Below, piece after piece: positions 4,539 to 30,532 of a stretch of 34,170 nt of DNA. The position numbers and the translations under genes were made by a program. Location of the stretch: NCBI RefSeq assembly GCF_020037015.1, contig NZ_JAIQDE010000049.1:1-34170 (forward strand). The letters are read 5' to 3'. Position 1 is the first letter of the stretch. Every line of letters begins with the position of its first letter. The notes under the pieces are model-generated. The model did not search any database, was not told the DNA's origin, and saw only the letters and a list, made by a program, of their open reading frames with translations. Origin of the DNA: Corallococcus sp. AS-1-6. GTDB lineage: Bacteria > Myxococcota > Myxococcia > Myxococcales > Myxococcaceae.

Positions 4539-7028
4539 ATGAGTGAGACGCGGTGGTCCGGACGGTTCGAGGCGGCGATGGGCTCCCTGGCGGCCCGCAG
4601 CCACCAGAGGCCCTGGGTGGCGCTGTTCGTGACGCTGGTCCTGACGGGCCTCGGCACCTTCTTCGCGCGCGACCTGCGCCTCAACGCGGACCTGGCCAAC
4701 CTGCTGCCCAAGTCGTTCCAGTCCGTGCAGGACCTGGAGAAGCTGCGCACGCGCTTCGGCGGCCAGGGCAACGTGGTGGTGGCCGGCATCGGCGCGGAGC
4801 CCGAACAGCTCAAGCAGTTCGTGGATGACATGGCGCCGAAGCTGGCGACGCTGTCGGAGATCCGCTTCGTCAACGCGCAGCGGCCCAGCCAGTTCTTCGA
4901 CGAGCACGGCCTCTACTACGTGGACCTGCCGGACCTGAAGACCATCGAGGAGCGCATCGACGCGCGCTTCGCCTGGGAGAAGGCGCAGGCCAACCCGCTC
5001 TTCGTGCGCCTGGAGGAAGAGGCGCCCCCGTCCCTGGACTTCAGCGACATCCAGAAGAAGTACACCGGCGGCGCGAACATGCGGCTCGCGGGGCAGGGCG
5101 GCCTGTACTACCTGGATCCGCAGGAGCGCATGGTGGTGATGCTCCTGAAGGCCCGGGGCTCCTCCGCGGACCTGGGCTACTCCAAGACGGTCATCGCCCA
5201 GGTGGAGGACTACCTGGCGAAGCAGGACCTGTCGAAGTACGGCCCCGGCTTCCGCACGGAGATCACCGGCACGTTCAAGAAGAAGATCGACCAGCAGGCG
5301 GTCATCACCGGGGACCTGGCGCGCGCGTCCACGCTTGCGCTGGTGCTGCTGCTGGCCTACCTCATCTTCCACTTCCGCAGCGGCCTGTCCGTGGGCCTCA
5401 CCATGGTGCCGGTGGTCGCGGGCCTGTCGTGGACCTACGGCTTCGTGGGCGTGGCGTACGGGCAGGTGAACCTGCTGACGGGCTTCCTCGCGGCGGTGCT
5501 GGGCGGCCTGGGCGTGGAGCACGGCATCCACCTGCTGGGGCGCTGGGGCACGCTGCGCTCGGAGGGCATGACGTCGGAGGAGGCGGTGCGGGAGACGTTC
5601 CGGCACACGGGCTTCTCCGCGCTCATCTCCGCGCTGGTGGCGGCGCTCACGTTCCTCAGCCTGTCGTGGTCGGAGTTCAGGGCGTTCCACGAGTTCGGCG
5701 TCATCGCGGCGGTGGGCATGATGGTGAGCGTGGCGTCGTACCTGCTCATCCTGCCGGCGCTGCTGGGGCTGGTGTCGCGCTGGGGCTGGGTGCCGCGTGA
5801 GCACCAGTCGCAGTCCGGGCCCATGGCGATGCTGGCGCGCTTCCTGCCGCGCCGCTACCGCGCGGTGGCCATCGTCATCGGCGTGGCGCTGGTGGGGCTC
5901 ATCAGCCAGGCGTACCGGGTGAGCTTCAACTACGACTCCACGAAGCTGGATGACGTGTCGCTGCCGAGCGTGCGGTTGGACCGGCGCATCGACCACATCC
6001 TGGGCTACTCGGCGACGCCGGTGGTGGTGCTGACGGACTCGGAGCCGATGGAGCGCGAGGTGGTGAAGCAGCTCCAGGCGCGCAAGGAGAAGTACGGCAA
6101 GGACTCCACCATCGACTTCGTGGGCGCGCTGGAGGACCTGGTGCCCCAGCACCAGGAGGAGAAGCACGCGCTGCTCCAGTCCATCCACCAGAAGCTCCAG
6201 CGCATCGATCCGGAGCGCGTGGACAAGGCCCAGCGTGACGACCTGGTGCGCGCGGTGAAGATGACGGGCGCGAAGCCCTTCACGCGCGAGGACCTGCCGG
6301 TGAGCCTGCGCCGCCAGTTCGAGCCCGCGGCCGGCCAGAAGGGCGGCGTGGTGCTGGTCTACGCGAACGTGAGCCTGTCGGACGGCGCGGGCACGCGGCG
6401 CTTCACCAAGGAGGTGCGCAACCTCCAGATGCCGGACGGCAGCCAGGTGTCCGCGGCGGGCGAGGCGCTCATCCTGGCGGACATCCTGGACATGGTGGCC
6501 TCCGAGGGCCCGCGCATCCTGGTGGCCGCGGTGGTCAGCGTCTTCCTGGCCATGTGGCTGACGCTGGGCTCGCTGCGCAACGCGGTCATCTGCATGCTGC
6601 CCACGCTGCTGTCCATCGCGGCGCTGGTGGGCCTGATGTCCCTCATGGGCCTGCAGTTCAACTACCTGAACATCGTGGTCATCCCGGTGCTCATCGGCAC
6701 GACGGTGGATGCGGGCGTGCACCTGATTGAGCGCCTGGGCGAGCCGGGCGCGGACTTCGTGACCGTCTACGCGGAGACGGGCCGGGCCATCACGGGCGGC
6801 CTGCTCACGAGCGCCATCGGCTTCCTGGCGCTGGTGTTCGCCAAGCACCCGGGCCTCAACTCCATTGGCGACCTGGCCAACCTGGGCTTCGCGGTGAACA
6901 TGGTGGTCGTGCTGGTGGGCTTCCCGGCGCTCCTGCTGCTCGTGGACCGCTGGCGCAACAAGCACAGCAGCGCCACGTCCACCCCGGCGGCCGGCGGCGA
7001 CGAGGGCCAGCGCCCCGCGGAGAGCTGA
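4539..7028 (+). CDS. RND/MMPL-family exporter (copy B)
   Basis: This 829-aa inner-membrane transporter is collinear with copy A along its whole length. Shared blocks include SKYGPGF, GLGVEHGIHLLGR (Glu near residue 327), FNYLNI and the C-terminal-half motif GTTVDAGVHL (Asp near residue 724). The ATG at 4539 follows AGGAAA. In RND transporters the TM4 acidic residue relays protons; here the N-terminal half has Glu and the C-terminal half has Asp, in both copies. The two genes form an inverted, divergent paralogous pair. A fatty-acid hydroxylase gene follows 133 nt downstream. Lipid or hydrophobic-molecule export is the family expectation; the actual cargo is unknown. Confidence 0.88.
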   Translation: MSETRWSGRFEAAMGSLAARSHQRPWVALFVTLVLTGLGTFFARDLRLNADLANLLPKSFQSVQDLEKLRTRFGGQGNVVVAGIGAEPEQLKQFVDDMAPKLATLSEIRFVNAQRPSQFFDEHGLYYVDLPDLKTIEERIDARFAWEKAQANPLFVRLEEEAPPSLDFSDIQKKYTGGANMRLAGQGGLYYLDPQERMVVMLLKARGSSADLGYSKTVIAQVEDYLAKQDLSKYGPGFRTEITGTFKKKIDQQAVITGDLARASTLALVLLLAYLIFHFRSGLSVGLTMVPVVAGLSWTYGFVGVAYGQVNLLTGFLAAVLGGLGVEHGIHLLGRWGTLRSEGMTSEEAVRETFRHTGFSALISALVAALTFLSLSWSEFRAFHEFGVIAAVGMMVSVASYLLILPALLGLVSRWGWVPREHQSQSGPMAMLARFLPRRYRAVAIVIGVALVGLISQAYRVSFNYDSTKLDDVSLPSVRLDRRIDHILGYSATPVVVLTDSEPMEREVVKQLQARKEKYGKDSTIDFVGALEDLVPQHQEEKHALLQSIHQKLQRIDPERVDKAQRDDLVRAVKMTGAKPFTREDLPVSLRRQFEPAAGQKGGVVLVYANVSLSDGAGTRRFTKEVRNLQMPDGSQVSAAGEALILADILDMVASEGPRILVAAVVSVFLAMWLTLGSLRNAVICMLPTLLSIAALVGLMSLMGLQFNYLNIVVIPVLIGTTVDAGVHLIERLGEPGADFVTVYAETGRAITGGLLTSAIGFLALVFAKHPGLNSIGDLANLGFAVNMVVVLVGFPALLLLVDRWRNKHSSATSTPAAGGDEGQRPAES

Positions 7029-7161: not shown

Positions 7162-7797
7162 ATGTTCGAGAACGCCTTCCTCGAGGCGGCCTCGAAGCTA
7201 CACCCCGCGGTGCCGGTCCTGCTCTACGGCCCGCTCACGCTGGGCCTGCTCGGGTGGGGGCTGTCAGGGGGACGGACGACGGTGGGGCGGGCCCTGCTGT
7301 TCATCCCGCTGGGCCTGCTGACGTGGATCCTCATGGAGTACTGCATCCACCGGTTCTTCTTCCACTGGGAGGGCAAGGGCCCGCTCAGCCGGCGGGTGCA
7401 TGAGATTGCGCACGGCTACCACCACAAGTACCCGGACGACTCGCAGCGCCTGGTGATGCCGCTCATCGTCACCGTGCCGCTGTCCTCGCTCATCGGGGTG
7501 TCGCTGTGGTGGGTGGGCCGCCCGGCGGAGATGCTCCCGTACTTCGTGGGCATCGTCTGGGGCTACGTGACCTACGACACGCTCCACTGGGCCACGCACC
7601 ACCGCACGCCGCGCACGGCCTGGGGCAAGGCGCTGCGCGCGCACCACATGGCGCACCACTTCGCGACGCCGGACCGCAACTTCGCCATCAGCAACCGGTG
7701 GATGGACGCGCTGATGGGGAGCGGAGGGCGGCGCCCCGCGAAGGAAGCATCACGCGGCGAGGCACCTCCCAAGCAGGGCGCCGGCGTGGGGCCCTGA
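7162..7797 (+). CDS. Fatty acid hydroxylase superfamily membrane enzyme
   Basis: This 211-aa membrane protein has the di-iron histidine clusters of the fatty-acid hydroxylase / sterol desaturase superfamily: HRFFFH (63-68), HEIAHGYHH (80-88), HWATHH (142-147) and HHMAHH (161-166). Four hydrophobic segments surround them. The spacing resembles Scs7/Fah1-type enzymes, which 2-hydroxylate the acyl chain of ceramide. The frame is open to 7087, but the codons before 7162 (TCA, TAT, CAA, TCT) are unlike host usage and the peptide looks random, so I start at ATG 7162; its RBS is weak. The basic C-terminal tail is probably cytoplasmic. The gene ends 9 nt from a convergent gene. Substrate assignment to lipids is by family. 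Confidence 0.8.
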   Translation: MFENAFLEAASKLHPAVPVLLYGPLTLGLLGWGLSGGRTTVGRALLFIPLGLLTWILMEYCIHRFFFHWEGKGPLSRRVHEIAHGYHHKYPDDSQRLVMPLIVTVPLSSLIGVSLWWVGRPAEMLPYFVGIVWGYVTYDTLHWATHHRTPRTAWGKALRAHHMAHHFATPDRNFAISNRWMDALMGSGGRRPAKEASRGEAPPKQGAGVGP

Positions 7798-7806
7798 GGC
7801 GCGGCG

Positions 7807-8577
7807 TCAGGGGTCCATACGCCCGCCAATCACCGGGAACCGGTCGTAGGCCCGCAGGAGCGCGTCCAGGTGGGCAGGATTGTCGAGGGTGAGCGGCGCG
7901 TCCGTGAGCTGGACCAGCCACCCGCCGGATGGGAGCCTCCTCGAGCGCGAGAGCAGGTCCGCGTCGTGCTCTGGAGCCGGGAACCCGATGGTTCGTGCGG
8001 CTGCGGCGGACCAGTAGTTCAACCAGCCCAGCCGATGGGGAATCTCTGGCGAGCGGAGCTCTTGGGGGAACTTGAGTGCGGGCAGGCCCCGCGGAGGCAC
8101 CTGGGGTTTGCGCACGGGGTGGACTGTCTGGCGTGAGAGTTCCGCCGCCGCCTCAAAGGGCGTGGCATGACCCCACAGCGCGTGCGCTCCTTCGCCCATG
8201 GCCTCCAGAGCCTTCGAGGCTACCGCAAGGCTCTCCGCGTCCATTGGGAGCTTGGCGTGGACGTCGAGCAGTGGCGTGGGGCCAGGTCCATCCAGTGCGG
8301 ACATCGTCACGGGCGCGCCTTCATCGTTGTTGCAGATGAAGGGGATTCCCCCGTCCCTGCGGATCCGGGCGAGCCACTCATCCCGCTCAGGGAGGGGCAC
8401 GAGTTCCTGCTCATCCGAGACGGTCCACCCCAGCCGAAGGCCGGGAACCACGTGCTCCAGTCCATGCGCCGCGGCCACGAGACAACGCTCGTCCCCTGGA
8501 TGTGCGGGCACATAGACCCGGATGGCGAGGGAGGTGGAAGTAACGTGCGATGTACGCGGAGGTGCGGGCGTGGGCAT
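7807..8577 (-). CDS. DUF5953-like protein of unknown function
   Basis: The 256-aa protein resembles a Myxococcaceae-restricted family I recall as DUF5953, with the characteristic stretches VPGLRLGW, ELVPLPERDEWL, VHAKLP, LWGHATP, PPRGLPALKFP and LGWLNYWSAAAAR. It has no signal peptide or membrane helix and is probably cytoplasmic. In my recollection such proteins occur near polymorphic-toxin immunity genes, but no toxin gene is present here. The sequence upstream is a 600-bp A+T-richer island with possible gene debris. The ATG at 8577 lacks a strong RBS, so the start is uncertain. Identification of the family is moderate; no biochemical role is known to me. Confidence 0.65.
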   Translation of the reverse strand: MPTPAPPRTSHVTSTSLAIRVYVPAHPGDERCLVAAAHGLEHVVPGLRLGWTVSDEQELVPLPERDEWLARIRRDGGIPFICNNDEGAPVTMSALDGPGPTPLLDVHAKLPMDAESLAVASKALEAMGEGAHALWGHATPFEAAAELSRQTVHPVRKPQVPPRGLPALKFPQELRSPEIPHRLGWLNYWSAAAARTIGFPAPEHDADLLSRSRRLPSGGWLVQLTDAPLTLDNPAHLDALLRAYDRFPVIGGRMDP

Positions 8578-27028: not shown

Positions 27029-28114
27029 ATGTCGCTCGACCACTACGTCACCCTGGGCCGCTCCGGCCTGCGCGTCAGCCCCTTCTGCCTGGGGGCCATG
27101 ACGTTCGGCGAGGACCTGGGCTGGGGCAGCAGCGTGGAGACGTCCAACGCCATCCTGGACCGCTTCATCGAGCGGGGCGGGAACTTCATCGACACGGCGA
27201 ACGCGTACACGTTCGGGCACTCGGAGAAGATCATCGGGGACCACATCGGGAGGCACCCGGCGAAGCGCGACCGGGTGGTCATCGCGACGAAGTTCTTCTC
27301 CAACCTGTTCGAGAAGGACCCGAATGGCGGCGGCGCGGGCCGCAAGTCGGTGATGGCGGCATGCGACGAATCGCTGCGCCGGCTTCAGACGGACTACATC
27401 GACCTGTACTGGATGCACGCCTGGGACGCGAACACGCCCATCGAGGAGACGATGCGGGCGCTGGACGACCTGGTGCGCTCGGGCAAGGTCCGCTACGTGG
27501 GCTTCTCCGACACGCCCGCGTGGAAGGTGTCGCAGGCGCAGGTGACGGCCTTCTTCCGGGGCTGGGCGCCGCTGGTGGCGTTGCAGATCGAGTACTCGCT
27601 GCTGGAGCGCACGGTGGAGGGCGAGCTCATCCCGATGGCGCGAGAGCTGGGGCTGGGCGTGACGCCGTGGTCGCCGCTGCGCAGCGGGGTGCTGAGCGGC
27701 AAGTACACGCGGGAGAACGCGGGCAGGCAGAAGGCGGACCGGGGCGCGTGGGCGGAGGCGTCGCTCAACGAGAAGACCTACAAGCTCATCGACGTGCTCC
27801 AGCGCGTGGCGAAGGAGCAGGCCTCCACGGTGGCGCGCGTGGCGCTGGCCTGGGTGCAGGGCCGGCCGGGCGTGGCGTCCACCATCCTGGGCGCGCGCAC
27901 GCTGGAGCAGTTGGACAACAACCTGGGCGCGCTGGACGTGAAGCTCACGCCCGCGCAGGTGAAGGCGCTGGACGACGAATCCCAGCCCACGCTCAACTTC
28001 CCGGCGGCCTTCCTCCAGGGCGCGCCGTCCTTCATGCACGCGGGCCTGCGCGTGAACGGAGTCCAGGCCCCGCCCAGCAACCTGACGCCCAAGGCAGGCA
28101 CCCCCCGGTACTGA
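27029..28114 (+). CDS. Aldo/keto reductase
   Basis: The 361-aa cytoplasmic oxidoreductase reduces carbonyls with NADPH. The catalytic tetrad is visible: Asp and Tyr in NFIDTANAYTFG, Lys in VVIATKFF and His in LYWMHAWD. The C-terminal cofactor site includes VASTILGARTLEQLDNNL. It belongs to the YajO/Tas-like group and is not closely similar to the nearby pseudogene. The ATG at 27029 is preceded by GGGGGAA. It lies 157 nt after the thioredoxin-like gene. Confidence 0.9.
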   Translation: MSLDHYVTLGRSGLRVSPFCLGAMTFGEDLGWGSSVETSNAILDRFIERGGNFIDTANAYTFGHSEKIIGDHIGRHPAKRDRVVIATKFFSNLFEKDPNGGGAGRKSVMAACDESLRRLQTDYIDLYWMHAWDANTPIEETMRALDDLVRSGKVRYVGFSDTPAWKVSQAQVTAFFRGWAPLVALQIEYSLLERTVEGELIPMARELGLGVTPWSPLRSGVLSGKYTRENAGRQKADRGAWAEASLNEKTYKLIDVLQRVAKEQASTVARVALAWVQGRPGVASTILGARTLEQLDNNLGALDVKLTPAQVKALDDESQPTLNFPAAFLQGAPSFMHAGLRVNGVQAPPSNLTPKAGTPRY

Positions 28115-28141
28115 GGTGGAACGCCGTGTCGGGGCATTCTG

Positions 28142-28165
28142 TATGATACGTACAGAACGTACGTT
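28142..28165 (+). promoter_or_regulatory. Antitoxin promoter/operator region
   Basis: A -10-like TATGAT (28142-28147) is followed by TACGTA (28147-28152) and the 10-bp perfect palindrome AACGTACGTT (28156-28165). Two ACGTAC units 9 bp apart just upstream of a Phd-type gene fit the autoregulatory operators of this family. No good -35 hexamer is present at 16-18 bp. The RBS GAGGAA and ATG 28181 follow. Confidence 0.5.
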
Positions 28166-28180
28166 TCCCGAGGAACGGCC

Positions 28181-28534
28181 ATGATGGAAGTCAGCATCAC
28201 CGAAGCGCGCGACGACCTGGCGGAGCTGCTCAACCGGGCGGCCTACGGGAAGGAGCGGCTCGTCCTGACCCGGCACGGCAAGAAGCTGGTCGCGGTGATT
28301 CCCTTCGAGGACCTCCAGGCGCTGGAGGCGCTGGAGGACCGGCGGGACATCCAGAAGGCGGACGCCGCGCGCCGGGAGTCCGAGGGCCAGCCGCGCGTCG
28401 CGTGGAAGCAGGTGAAGGCGGAGCTGGGGCTCACGAAGAAGAAGGCGAAGAAACCGGCTAGCGGTAGATCTCCCGCCGGTGGCCCAGCTCGACGATCAAC
28501 ACCACGAGCCGGCCGTCCTCGACCTGGTAGATGA
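28181..28534 (+). CDS. Phd/YefM-family antitoxin
   Basis: The 117-aa protein begins with the Phd/YefM DNA-binding fold: MEVSITEARDDLAELLNRA, then RLVLTRHGKKLVAVIPFEDLQALE. This N-terminal domain dimerises on operator DNA, and the C-terminal tail normally wraps and neutralises a RelE/ParE- or Doc-type toxin. The tail here is basic (GLTKKKAKKPASGRSP) and extends 25 codons into sequence that encodes the end of the toxin on the other strand, so the annotated C-terminus may be longer than in relatives. The toxin gene is convergent rather than downstream in the same operon. Confidence 0.85.
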   Translation: MMEVSITEARDDLAELLNRAAYGKERLVLTRHGKKLVAVIPFEDLQALEALEDRRDIQKADAARRESEGQPRVAWKQVKAELGLTKKKAKKPASGRSPAGGPARRSTPRAGRPRPGR

Positions 28535-28730
28535 CGCGGTAGTCACCGATGCGGATCCGCAGGTAGTCGCTGCCCTTGAGCTTCTCCGCGCCCACGGGCC
28601 GGGGCTCCGTGGCCAGGGCGTCGATCCGCTTCGCGATGCGGCGCTGATGGACCGGATCCACCGCCGCGAGCTGCTTCACGGCGGCCTGGAGGAACTCGAC
28701 CGTATAGATGGCGGAGGGCTTCGTGCTCAT
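28458..28730 (-). CDS. RelE/ParE-family toxin, convergent to its antitoxin
   Basis: The 90-aa protein is a full-length RelE/ParE-fold toxin: YTVEFLQAAVKQLAAVD, RRIAKRIDALATEPRP, then GSDYLRIRIGDYRVIYQVED and the typical ending VELGHRREIYR. RelE members cleave ribosome-bound mRNA, whereas ParE members poison gyrase; the sequence alone does not separate them securely, though the RIRIGDYRVIY and GHRREIY blocks favour RelE. It overlaps the Phd-type antitoxin gene tail to tail by 77 bp on the opposite strand. No strong RBS precedes ATG 28730, so expression may be low. Confidence 0.85.
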   Translation of the reverse strand: MSTKPSAIYTVEFLQAAVKQLAAVDPVHQRRIAKRIDALATEPRPVGAEKLKGSDYLRIRIGDYRVIYQVEDGRLVVLIVELGHRREIYR

Positions 28731-28996
28731 TCGGGGCGGGTGGCCCCCGAGTGTCTACCTGCCCCTCCTGACATGGCGGGTTGGCAGTGGAAAGCCGAAC
28801 CCTGTCGGCACACCGGCGCACAGTGTGGAGTGCGGGGCCTTACGTTTCGGGGCTCGGGTGGGGGCAAAGGGCCGCTGGAACGTTCACGGGCGGACGCTGG
28901 CGGTAGCGCGAACGGGGGGCGTTCCTAACATCGGCCCCCTGGCAGTGAGTCGGTGGTCGGGCGGTCTGGCGCGGTACGGGCGGCGGGGAGGGTGGC

Positions 28997-30532
28997 GTGA
29001 GCGAGCGACTGACGGGTGATGTGTCTTCGCGGGCGCAGGCGGGTGGTCCGGACTTCTCCCGCGACCCCGAGACCTTCGAAGCAGAGCTGGATGCGTGCCT
29101 CGAACGCGCCCTCTCCTCCGTGTCCTCCGAAGAAGAGGAGCTCGTGCCGGAGTCCTTCGCGACCGGCCCGCTGCGCACGCTGCTCGACCTGGCCTCCACG
29201 GAGGAGTCCTGGCTCCAGTCGCTGCCGCCGTCCTCCAACGACAACGTGGAGCCCCAGCTCACGCTGTCCGCCGAGGCCGCGAACGTCGTCATCCCGGAGT
29301 GGCTGCGCGCGGAGGAGTCCGCGTCCAGCACCTCCCAGCAGCGCTCCTGCGGCGCCGTGACGTCGTGGGATGCCCCGCCGCCGTCGCCCGCCTGGGCCAC
29401 GCCCGGCTCTCCCGCCGAGGCCTACGCGCCGCAGCCGTGGATGCCGTACGCCCCCGTGGCGCCCGAGCCTCCGCCGCCCGTCATCGCCGACGCCTCCACG
29501 CACATCCTCGGCATGAGCCCCATGTCCTTCGTCAGCGCCGTGGCGATGGGCGCGCTCGCCGCGGGGCTCCTCGTCGTCGCGGGCCTGCGGCTCACGTCGA
29601 AGGATGAGGCGCGGTCCATGCCGCAAGCGCAGGTCCTGACTGGCACCGTCGCCGCGCGAGCCGGCGCTCCGGGAACGCAGGGCTTCGCGACGACTCAGCC
29701 GAACACCCTGGCCACCCAGGGCGCCATGCCCGCGCAGGGCTTCTACGGTGTCCCCGGCATCCAGGCGGGCACGCCGGACCTCTCCCAGTCCATCGCGGGC
29801 GGCGTGAACACCCCCGCACTCACGGACGCGCAGCGCGCCGCGCAGGCCCTCACCCCGAACACGCCCGTCCTCGCGGGCCCCGCGAGCGCGGGCCTGACCA
29901 CCGGCCTGCACACGCTGGCCCCGGACCCCACGCCGTCCCAGCAGCCCGCTCCGGCGGCGCCGAAGAAGGCCCCCGTGGCCCAGCGCGCCGCCACGCTCGA
30001 AGCGCCCGAGGACACCGGCGATGTCCGCGAGATGTCCTTCGGCGGCGAAATCTCCGAGGAGGAGCTGGCCCGGGCCCGTCAGGCCGCCGCCGAAGCCGAG
30101 GCCGAGGAAGCCGCGCAGCCCGAATCCGAAATCGACGAGGACTTCGCCCGCGAGCTCGGCTTCACCGACGACGCGGAGGCCTCCGCCCCGAAGCAGACCC
30201 AGGAGAAGACCGTCTACATCCCGCCGGCCCCGACCTCCGAGCGCGAGCAGCTCGCGCCCTCGGACATCACCAACGTGGTCGTCACGAACCAGCCCGCCAT
30301 CGCCGCCTGCGTCCAGAACTTCAAGGCCGGCACCGCGCTGGAGAACGGCGGACGCTTCCAACTGCGCTGGTCCGTGGACACCGCCGGCACCGTCTCCGGC
30401 GTCGCCATGGAGACCGAGGCCCTGCAGGGCTCCCCGCTCGCCGGCTGCATCGAGGACCAGGTGCGCGGCTGGAAGTTCCCCGTGCACCGCGTCGCCATGA
30501 ACGCCCCCGTGCACTACCCCTTCGTCTTCTAA
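28997..30532 (+). CDS. AgmX/PglI-type TonB-like C-terminal domain protein
   Basis: The 511-aa protein has an acidic cytoplasmic N-terminal region (1-170), one transmembrane helix (about 173-197, SFVSAVAMGALAAGLLVVAG), a long Pro/Ala/Glu-rich periplasmic linker and a C-terminal domain of about 95 aa. That domain (ITNVVVTNQPAIAACVQNF, GRFQLRWSVDTAGTVSGV, CIEDQVRGWKFP) matches the TonB-like AgmX/PglI C-terminal domain of myxobacterial gliding-motility and envelope-spanning proteins. It probably reaches across the periplasm to couple inner-membrane energy to an outer-membrane partner; no ExbB/ExbD genes are nearby. The GTG at 28997 is used with GGGAGG upstream. Confidence 0.8.
   Translation: MSERLTGDVSSRAQAGGPDFSRDPETFEAELDACLERALSSVSSEEEELVPESFATGPLRTLLDLASTEESWLQSLPPSSNDNVEPQLTLSAEAANVVIPEWLRAEESASSTSQQRSCGAVTSWDAPPPSPAWATPGSPAEAYAPQPWMPYAPVAPEPPPPVIADASTHILGMSPMSFVSAVAMGALAAGLLVVAGLRLTSKDEARSMPQAQVLTGTVAARAGAPGTQGFATTQPNTLATQGAMPAQGFYGVPGIQAGTPDLSQSIAGGVNTPALTDAQRAAQALTPNTPVLAGPASAGLTTGLHTLAPDPTPSQQPAPAAPKKAPVAQRAATLEAPEDTGDVREMSFGGEISEEELARARQAAAEAEAEEAAQPESEIDEDFARELGFTDDAEASAPKQTQEKTVYIPPAPTSEREQLAPSDITNVVVTNQPAIAACVQNFKAGTALENGGRFQLRWSVDTAGTVSGVAMETEALQGSPLAGCIEDQVRGWKFPVHRVAMNAPVHYPFVF

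What the first reader, a model, noticed from the sequence alone, without database searches (positions are those of the whole stretch)
28181..28730. Tail-to-tail Phd/RelE-type toxin-antitoxin pair overlapping by 77 bp
Canonical Phd/YefM-RelE modules are one operon with the antitoxin first. Here a complete RelE/ParE toxin gene lies on the opposite strand, its 3' end buried in the antitoxin gene, while the antitoxin has its own palindromic operator. Antitoxin transcription would run antisense through the toxin mRNA, adding RNA- or collision-based control, and the operator no longer governs the toxin directly. An inversion of an ancestral operon is one origin.
Basis: partly seen in the sequence, partly recalled or inferred. 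Interest (0 to 1): 0.62.

Follow-up and report, generated by a model that had tools for sequence, protein, structure and literature searches.

The report
Tail-to-tail toxin–antitoxin gene pair
In a few soil myxobacteria a bacterial toxin gene and the gene for its likely antidote protein point at each other on opposite DNA strands and share their last 77 bases, instead of sitting in one operon as such pairs normally do; the layout is shared by two genera and could add an RNA layer to a protein antidote.

Summary
A PhdYeFM antitoxin gene (28181-28534, +, 117 aa) and a complete RelE-fold toxin gene (28458-28730, -, 90 aa) converge and share 77 bp. It is not a misassembly: 4 of 16 held genomes of the genus carry it as a ~665-bp cassette at one site; 10 others show that site empty. 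A 67%-identical toxin in another genus of the family (G102) is also convergent, again with 77 bp shared, at another place. Relatives are mostly ordinary antitoxin-then-toxin pairs on one strand (73 of 80 kept; 0 convergent), and the intact convergent toxins group together (92/96, just short of the starred threshold): most likely one inversion. The toxin is still under purifying selection. The antitoxin has a tail of about 30 residues, 25 of them written antisense over the toxin's end. Protein neutralisation is the best-supported mechanism, untested; antisense or collision control is possible and untested. One genome (G011) has lost 41 toxin codons. New variant of a known kind: a type II pair in a type I-like layout.

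The parts
28181..28534 (+). Phd/YefM-family antitoxin gene, 117 aa; residues 1-68 match PF02604; 33 residues beyond ..LGL, where most of the canonical relatives read end
28458..28730 (-). RelE-fold toxin gene, 90 aa, complete; R58, R65, R85, Y89 (invariant in the 32 homologues aligned) present
28458..28534 (.). 77-bp antisense coding overlap; toxin codon position 3 faces antitoxin position 2 (reckoned from the coordinates), so every toxin-synonymous third-position change alters the antitoxin codon's middle base
28156..28165 (.). perfect 10-bp palindrome AACGTACGTT, likely operator for the antitoxin; AACGTACGTTT invariant in 5 of 5 convergent loci; binding not tested
28140..28147 (+). extended -10-like TGTATGAT (TATAAT in G010), possible antitoxin promoter; by eye, not found by the stricter consensus scan
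28170..28174 (+). GAGGA, likely Shine-Dalgarno of the antitoxin (by eye); none seen at the usual distance before the toxin ATG, where a GGAGG lies some 30 bases too far upstream
28122..28786 (.). about 665-bp cassette holding both genes, absent from the empty site of 10 other genomes of the genus; borders approximate, read by eye

Best explanation
A type II toxin-antitoxin module (RelE-fold toxin, Phd/YefM antitoxin) in which the toxin gene was inverted, most simply once, within the Myxococcaceae. Shown by sequence: convergent layout, shared 77 bp, the same layout in two genera at different places, insertion as one cassette in the window's genus, purifying selection on the toxin protein. Inferred: the antitoxin protein binds and blocks the toxin as in canonical relatives; it represses only its own promoter through the GTAC palindrome; the toxin lies outside that loop and is made separately and probably weakly (no evident Shine-Dalgarno or promoter, no coupling to the antitoxin). 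Possible further effect, inferred only: antitoxin transcription runs antisense into the toxin gene and lowers its expression.
For: Family matches; RelE fold, best PDB matches RelE 2khe and 1wmi; invariant residues kept; the nearest same-family relatives of toxin and antitoxin apart from G102 sit together in one canonical operon, G025:C53 (toxin 55%, antitoxin 56%); 73 of 80 antitoxin-first, 0 convergent; intact convergent toxins on one side of a branch, 92/96, 90% of 200 bootstrap trees; same layout and overlap length in G102. Toxin pN/pS outside the overlap: 0.28 for G000-G001 (Fisher p 0.003), 0.34 for G010-G001 (p 0.008), 0.34 for G000-G010 (6 changes, p 0.17, not significant), 0.41 for G000-G102 (p 3e-6). 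Antitoxin dN/dS 0.06-0.09 outside the overlap. The toxin is the only PF05016 match in this genome.
Against: No activity, binding or transcription was tested. G011 lost 41 toxin codons in frame while its antitoxin stays intact, and G001 has Leu for the nearly invariant R60, so the toxin may be decaying in some lineages. No toxin promoter or ribosome-binding site was recognised. In G102 the toxin start overlaps the stop of another ORF (ATGA), so another partner cannot be excluded there. The branch uniting the convergent toxins misses the starred threshold and its bootstrap had not settled. The model's last five residues, which hold Y89, have pLDDT under 50.
Confidence: 0.72

Rival explanations
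1. A relic: after the inversion the toxin lost its promoter and ribosome-binding site and is decaying, while the antitoxin survives as a solitary DNA-binding repressor or as protection against related toxins.
For: G011 toxin lacks 41 codons with antitoxin intact; R60L in G001; antitoxin more constrained (dN/dS 0.06-0.09) than toxin (0.24-0.33), both outside the overlap; no evident toxin Shine-Dalgarno or promoter.
Against: Toxin under purifying selection outside the overlap, G000-G001 p 0.003, G010-G001 p 0.008, G000-G102 p 3e-6; the layout persists with an intact toxin in G102.
Confidence: 0.25
2. Two-layer antitoxin gene: the antitoxin mRNA pairs with the toxin mRNA 3' end (at least 77 nt) and lowers it by RNase III, blocked translation or polymerase collision, on top of protein neutralisation; it works like a type I pair such as BsrG/SR4.
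For: 77 nt shared in two genera; no terminator-like site found in 27900-29100; the 77 nt identical in three genomes with 1 change in the fourth; toxin wobble sites variable at 0 of 25 inside against 13 of 65 outside (p 0.016). Analogues seen in passages: BsrG/SR4, 123-bp overlap of convergent transcripts, RNase III (PMC3874152); antisense RNA acting on mazEF (PMC8749433).
Against: No RNA data. The conservation is as well explained by two overlapping reading frames. At fourfold sites the contrast is not significant (0 of 13 against 7 of 35, p 0.17). Between G000 and G102 17 of 77 bases differ and toxin-synonymous change is only mildly lower inside the overlap (pS 0.50 against 0.64).
Confidence: 0.3
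3. The antitoxin tail written over the toxin gene is itself selected, for example as a basic tail that binds nucleic acid or toxin.
For: The 25 overlapped residues are identical in G000, G010 and G001 with one change in G011; antitoxin wobble sites variable at 0 of 25 inside against 24 of 91 outside (p 0.0018); the same antisense frame is open for 24 or more codons in 7 of 30 readable toxin homologues, 3 of 12 with locus GC of 0.6 or more (53 of the 80 loci given, 23 unreadable); canonical antitoxins G025:C22 and G037 have basic tails too.
Against: Only 12 of the 25 overlapped residues are identical in G102; antitoxin wobble sites there are toxin second positions, held by the toxin anyway; few genomes. 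(Odds lowered from 0.25 to 0.22 after a recount from 14 to 12.)
Confidence: 0.22

Closest known systems
Canonical Phd/YefM-RelE type II modules (e.g. G025:C53 here; solved relative M. tuberculosis RelBE1, 9g12)
   Same: Both protein families; 55-56% identity to G025:C53; a GTAC site before the antitoxin (by eye); RelE fold
   Different: There: one strand, antitoxin first, genes adjacent; here: opposite strands, 3' ends overlapping by 77 bp, antitoxin about 30 residues longer
[quoted passage not shown]
   Same: Departure from antitoxin-first order
   Different: Order changed, not strand, as the passage tells it; that they stay one operon is recalled
RacR/YdaST of the rac prophage (PMC5700373, abstract and passages)
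   Same: Toxin gene and its controller on opposite strands, not one operon
   Different: Divergent, not convergent; the paper describes control by transcriptional repression rather than by a toxin-binding antitoxin; no 3' overlap
Type I pairs with convergent, 3'-overlapping transcripts (BsrG/SR4 and Fst, TxpA/RatA; passages)
   Same: Toxin and antitoxin genes face each other and share 3' sequence
   Different: Their antitoxin is an RNA and the toxin a small peptide; here both products are proteins
mazEF with antisense RNA aMEF (PMC8749433, abstract and passages)
   Same: Antisense transcription across a type II system
   Different: There a separate RNA opposite the mazEF operon, and it stimulates synthesis and translation of mazEF

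Membership tests
Type II TA, Phd/YefM-RelE/ParE | Antitoxin of PhdYeFM family | tested here: met
   PF02604 E 5.5e-15, 55.3 of 29.8 bits; TIGR01552 phd_fam 39 of 20.8 bits
Type II TA, Phd/YefM-RelE/ParE | Toxin of RelE/ParE fold with conserved residues | tested here: met
   PF05016 E 2e-13; RelE fold match E 6.5e-7; R58, R65, R85, Y89 kept; against it, TIGR02385 RelE_StbE just below its cut-off, 27.2 of 27.9 bits
Type II TA, Phd/YefM-RelE/ParE | Two tandem genes on one strand (typical of types II to VII in TADB 3.0, PMC10767807, passage read) | tested here: not met
   Genes on opposite strands in 5 of 5 loci; the passage calls it typical, so this is layout rather than mechanism
Type II TA, Phd/YefM-RelE/ParE | Antitoxin protein binds and neutralises the toxin | not testable with these tools
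   needs a toxicity and rescue assay
Type II TA, Phd/YefM-RelE/ParE | Palindromic operator before the antitoxin | tested here: met
   palindrome present, AACGTACGTTT invariant in 5 of 5; binding and autoregulation not tested
Type I TA with 3'-overlapping transcripts | Antitoxin is an antisense RNA | not testable with these tools
   needs strand-specific RNA-seq and an untranslatable antitoxin allele
Type I TA with 3'-overlapping transcripts | Toxin is a small, usually hydrophobic peptide | tested here: not met
   90-aa RelE-fold protein

The most novel reading that the evidence does not exclude
A hybrid system: one antitoxin gene that works twice, as a Phd protein that neutralises a RelE toxin and as an mRNA whose 3' end is antisense to the toxin mRNA, kept as a unit in at least two genera of Myxococcaceae, with the toxin freed from the shared operator and the overlap locking both reading frames together.
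Probability: 0.27. Interest if true: 0.75.

Novelty: new variant of a known kind. Interest (0 to 1): 0.52.

Why it matters
Type II toxin-antitoxin pairs are explained and searched for as one-strand operons; TADB 3.0 keeps operon-structure detection for types II to VII (passage), so pairs like this would probably be passed over. It is a natural test of what gene order, coupling and shared autoregulation contribute: the toxin appears to have left the antitoxin's operator, yet stays under selection. It is also a traceable case of the end of one gene written over another.

Tried and rejected
Misassembly: rejected (four assemblies at one site plus a fifth at another). Independent chance meeting of two genes: unlikely, since close relatives of both sit together in canonical operons. 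Mobile-element ends: neither cassette end (70 and 76 bases) has a second copy in the 16 genus genomes at E 0.001 or better. A separate antitoxin before the toxin on the minus strand: two minus-strand ORFs there were scanned and gave none; the further one at 28840-29400 was not scanned. Inverted repeats that could explain the inversion: 12 imperfect or short pairs of 8-22 nt, none convincing at both ends of the toxin. Plasmids and phages: no record holds the convergent pair at DNA level; 2 and 6 records match a stretch of one gene. The ORF before the G102 toxin: no Pfam match; 3 of 195 genomes match, itself included; the G135 match shows no recognisable pair beside it by eye.

Limits of the counts: one search took toxin ends as 3250 for loci with a full flank, and antitoxin hits up to E 0.01. 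In one search three of the six 'canonical' calls are weak (L007 a fragment, L008 E 0.003, L147 hit inside the toxin match). One search used 53 rows, 40 of them from the 80 loci; truncated or distant rows (L005, L009, L010, L012, L014, L015) were left out. For the structure alignment 41 rows were asked, 33, 32; besides the rows named in the errors I left out seven. One search read 33 of the 75 loci with an antitoxin, and lengths there start at the profile match. One search was given 53 of the 80 loci and could read 30.

Literature: (77 returned nothing) showed no convergent type II pair. Of the papers listed I read passages of eleven; the rest were seen as listings. Mostly open-licence papers are held.

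Full report
Check of the observation. The antitoxin ORF runs 28181-28534 (+, 117 aa) and the toxin ORF 28458-28730 (-, 90 aa); they share 28458-28534, 77 bp. Pfam gives PhdYeFM_antitox (E 5.5e-15) and ParE_toxin (E 2e-13), both above cut-off; the NCBIfam RelE_StbE model is just under its cut-off. A model of the toxin (mean pLDDT 79; residues 1-3 and 86-90 under 50) matches RelE toxins best: T. thermophilus RelE 2khe (E 6.5e-7), then P. horikoshii RelE 1wmi. R58, R65, R85 and Y89 are invariant in the 32 homologues aligned and align with E. coli RelE positions that I recall as catalytic (alignment; the roles are recalled).

The locus in the genus. The 16 held genomes show the antitoxin in 4 of 16 (G000, G010, G011, G001) and the toxin in the same 4, convergent in all four. 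All four sit between the same two genes. In 10 of the other 12 genomes these two genes are adjacent with about 220 bp between them; in G002 and G015 the left gene was not on the stretch examined, but no antitoxin or toxin match was found anywhere in those two genomes either. On trees of the right flank (16 rows) and of the left gene (14 rows) the four do not form one clade; at least 4 changes are needed, 3 forced by starred branches; the other main branch (7 genomes on the first tree, 5 on the second) lacks it throughout. One gain with later losses, or spread by homologous recombination, both fit. G010's contig length suggests Corallococcus coralloides DSM 2259 to me; this is recalled and unconfirmed.

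A second genus. The family search (96 genomes; toxin in 12) found G102 with a 67% identical toxin. It is convergent with an antitoxin 64% identical to the window's, and the overlap is again 77 bp. The two genes that flank the window's pair are not found in the 14 kb around it. In the phylum search (195 genomes; antitoxin at E 1e-8 or better in 12) the same 5 genomes are the convergent ones. Of 10 antitoxin loci checked, 1 is convergent (G102), 7 canonical, 2 have no toxin found within 900 bp.

Relatives elsewhere. Of 21 loci from the genome searches 5 are convergent, 6 canonical (three of these calls weak), 10 without a recognised antitoxin. A 53-row toxin tree puts the four intact convergent toxins on one side of a branch (92/96; 90% of 200 bootstrap trees; bootstrap not settled), just short of the starred threshold. 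One inversion is therefore the simplest origin, not a proven one.

Selection. Outside the overlap the toxin has pN/pS 0.28 between G000 and G001 (12 synonymous, 10 nonsynonymous; Fisher p 0.003), 0.34 between G010 and G001 (p 0.008), 0.34 between G000 and G010 (3 and 3; p 0.17) and 0.41 between G000 and G102 (p 3e-6). Antitoxin dN/dS is 0.06-0.09. Inside the overlap three genomes are identical and G011 has one change. Toxin third positions vary at 13 of 65 outside and 0 of 25 inside (three genomes, p 0.016); over the part shared by four genomes 5 of 15 against 0 of 25 (p 0.005); at fourfold sites 7 of 35 against 0 of 13, not significant (p 0.17). Expected synonymous changes inside are 4.8 for G000-G001, seen 0 (Poisson 0.008). 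Over the longer G000-G102 distance the contrast is mild (pS 0.50 against 0.64). So dual constraint is suggested, not proven.

The antitoxin tail. The 33 canonical antitoxins read mostly end at or just after ..VKxxLGL or LGW (73-93 residues from the start of the profile match in 32 of 33, one 106); the convergent ones are 113-117 aa with 29-33 residues after LGL. The tail probably came with the inversion, although two canonical Myxococcota antitoxins have basic tails of their own (G025:C22, G037). The overlapped 25 residues are identical in three genomes, with one change in G011, and 12 of 25 identical in G102. The stop of the antitoxin is made by the toxin's Val-Ile codons GTC ATC read on the other strand, which explains why the overlap is 77 bp in both genera.

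Expression signals. The antitoxin has a TGTATGAT element, the AACGTACGTT palindrome and GAGGA before its ATG (by eye); AACGTACGTTT is invariant in 5 of 5. The consensus scan found no sigma-70-type promoter and no terminator on either strand in 27900-29100. The toxin has no evident Shine-Dalgarno close to its ATG in the four genus genomes (by eye). In G102 the toxin ATG overlaps the stop of a 175-aa ORF (ATGA), so coupling to another gene is possible there.

Decay. G011 has lost 123 nt (41 codons) of the toxin in frame, with the antitoxin intact; G001 has Leu at R60. The toxin is the only PF05016 match in the window's genome, and 6 of 16 genus genomes have any; PF02604 has 2 matches here.

Mechanism. 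Protein neutralisation is inferred from family membership and from canonical relatives. Uncoupling from a shared operator follows from the layout. Antisense or collision control is open; control by convergent, 3'-overlapping transcripts is described for type I pairs such as BsrG/SR4 (PMC3874152, passages), antisense RNA acting on a type II operon for mazEF (PMC8749433, abstract and passages), and antisense RNAs at type II loci in archaea (PMC6523106, abstract and passages). A toxin and its repressor on opposite strands, but divergent, is described for RacR/YdaST (PMC5700373, abstract and passages). TADB 3.0 describes types II to VII as typically two tandem genes on one strand and keeps operon detection for them (PMC10767807, passages). 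My searches for a convergent type II pair in print showed none; this is limited to the held library and, for most papers listed, to listings.

Noticed in passing
L158 (G102:C1:98000-112000), 6007-6203 and 7744-7940: A perfect 197-bp direct repeat brackets the G102 convergent pair and its upstream ORF in a stretch of lower GC (0.60-0.62 per kb against 0.66-0.75); a run of N lies beside one copy, so a real duplication or an assembly effect are both possible.
   Followed up: partly
L158 6458-6985 (+): A 175-aa ORF without a Pfam match whose stop overlaps the toxin start (ATGA) in G102; 2 other weak matches in 195 genomes.
   Followed up: partly
window 28116-28121 and 28787-28792; 28122-28133 and 28767-28778: Possible 6-bp target duplication (GTGGAA) and an imperfect 12-bp inverted repeat (10 of 12) at the cassette borders, by eye; could be chance.
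   Followed up: partly
G000:C19:30928-31116: A second PhdYeFM match in the genome; 5 of the 15 other genus genomes have a match of that weaker class over the cut-off and 5 more below it; partner unknown.
   Followed up: no
L095 3001-3511: Acidobacteria locus with a partial toxin match followed by the antitoxin on the same strand (reversed order).
   Followed up: no
G011:C9:21452-21592: Toxin copy with an in-frame 41-codon deletion next to an intact antitoxin.
   Followed up: yes
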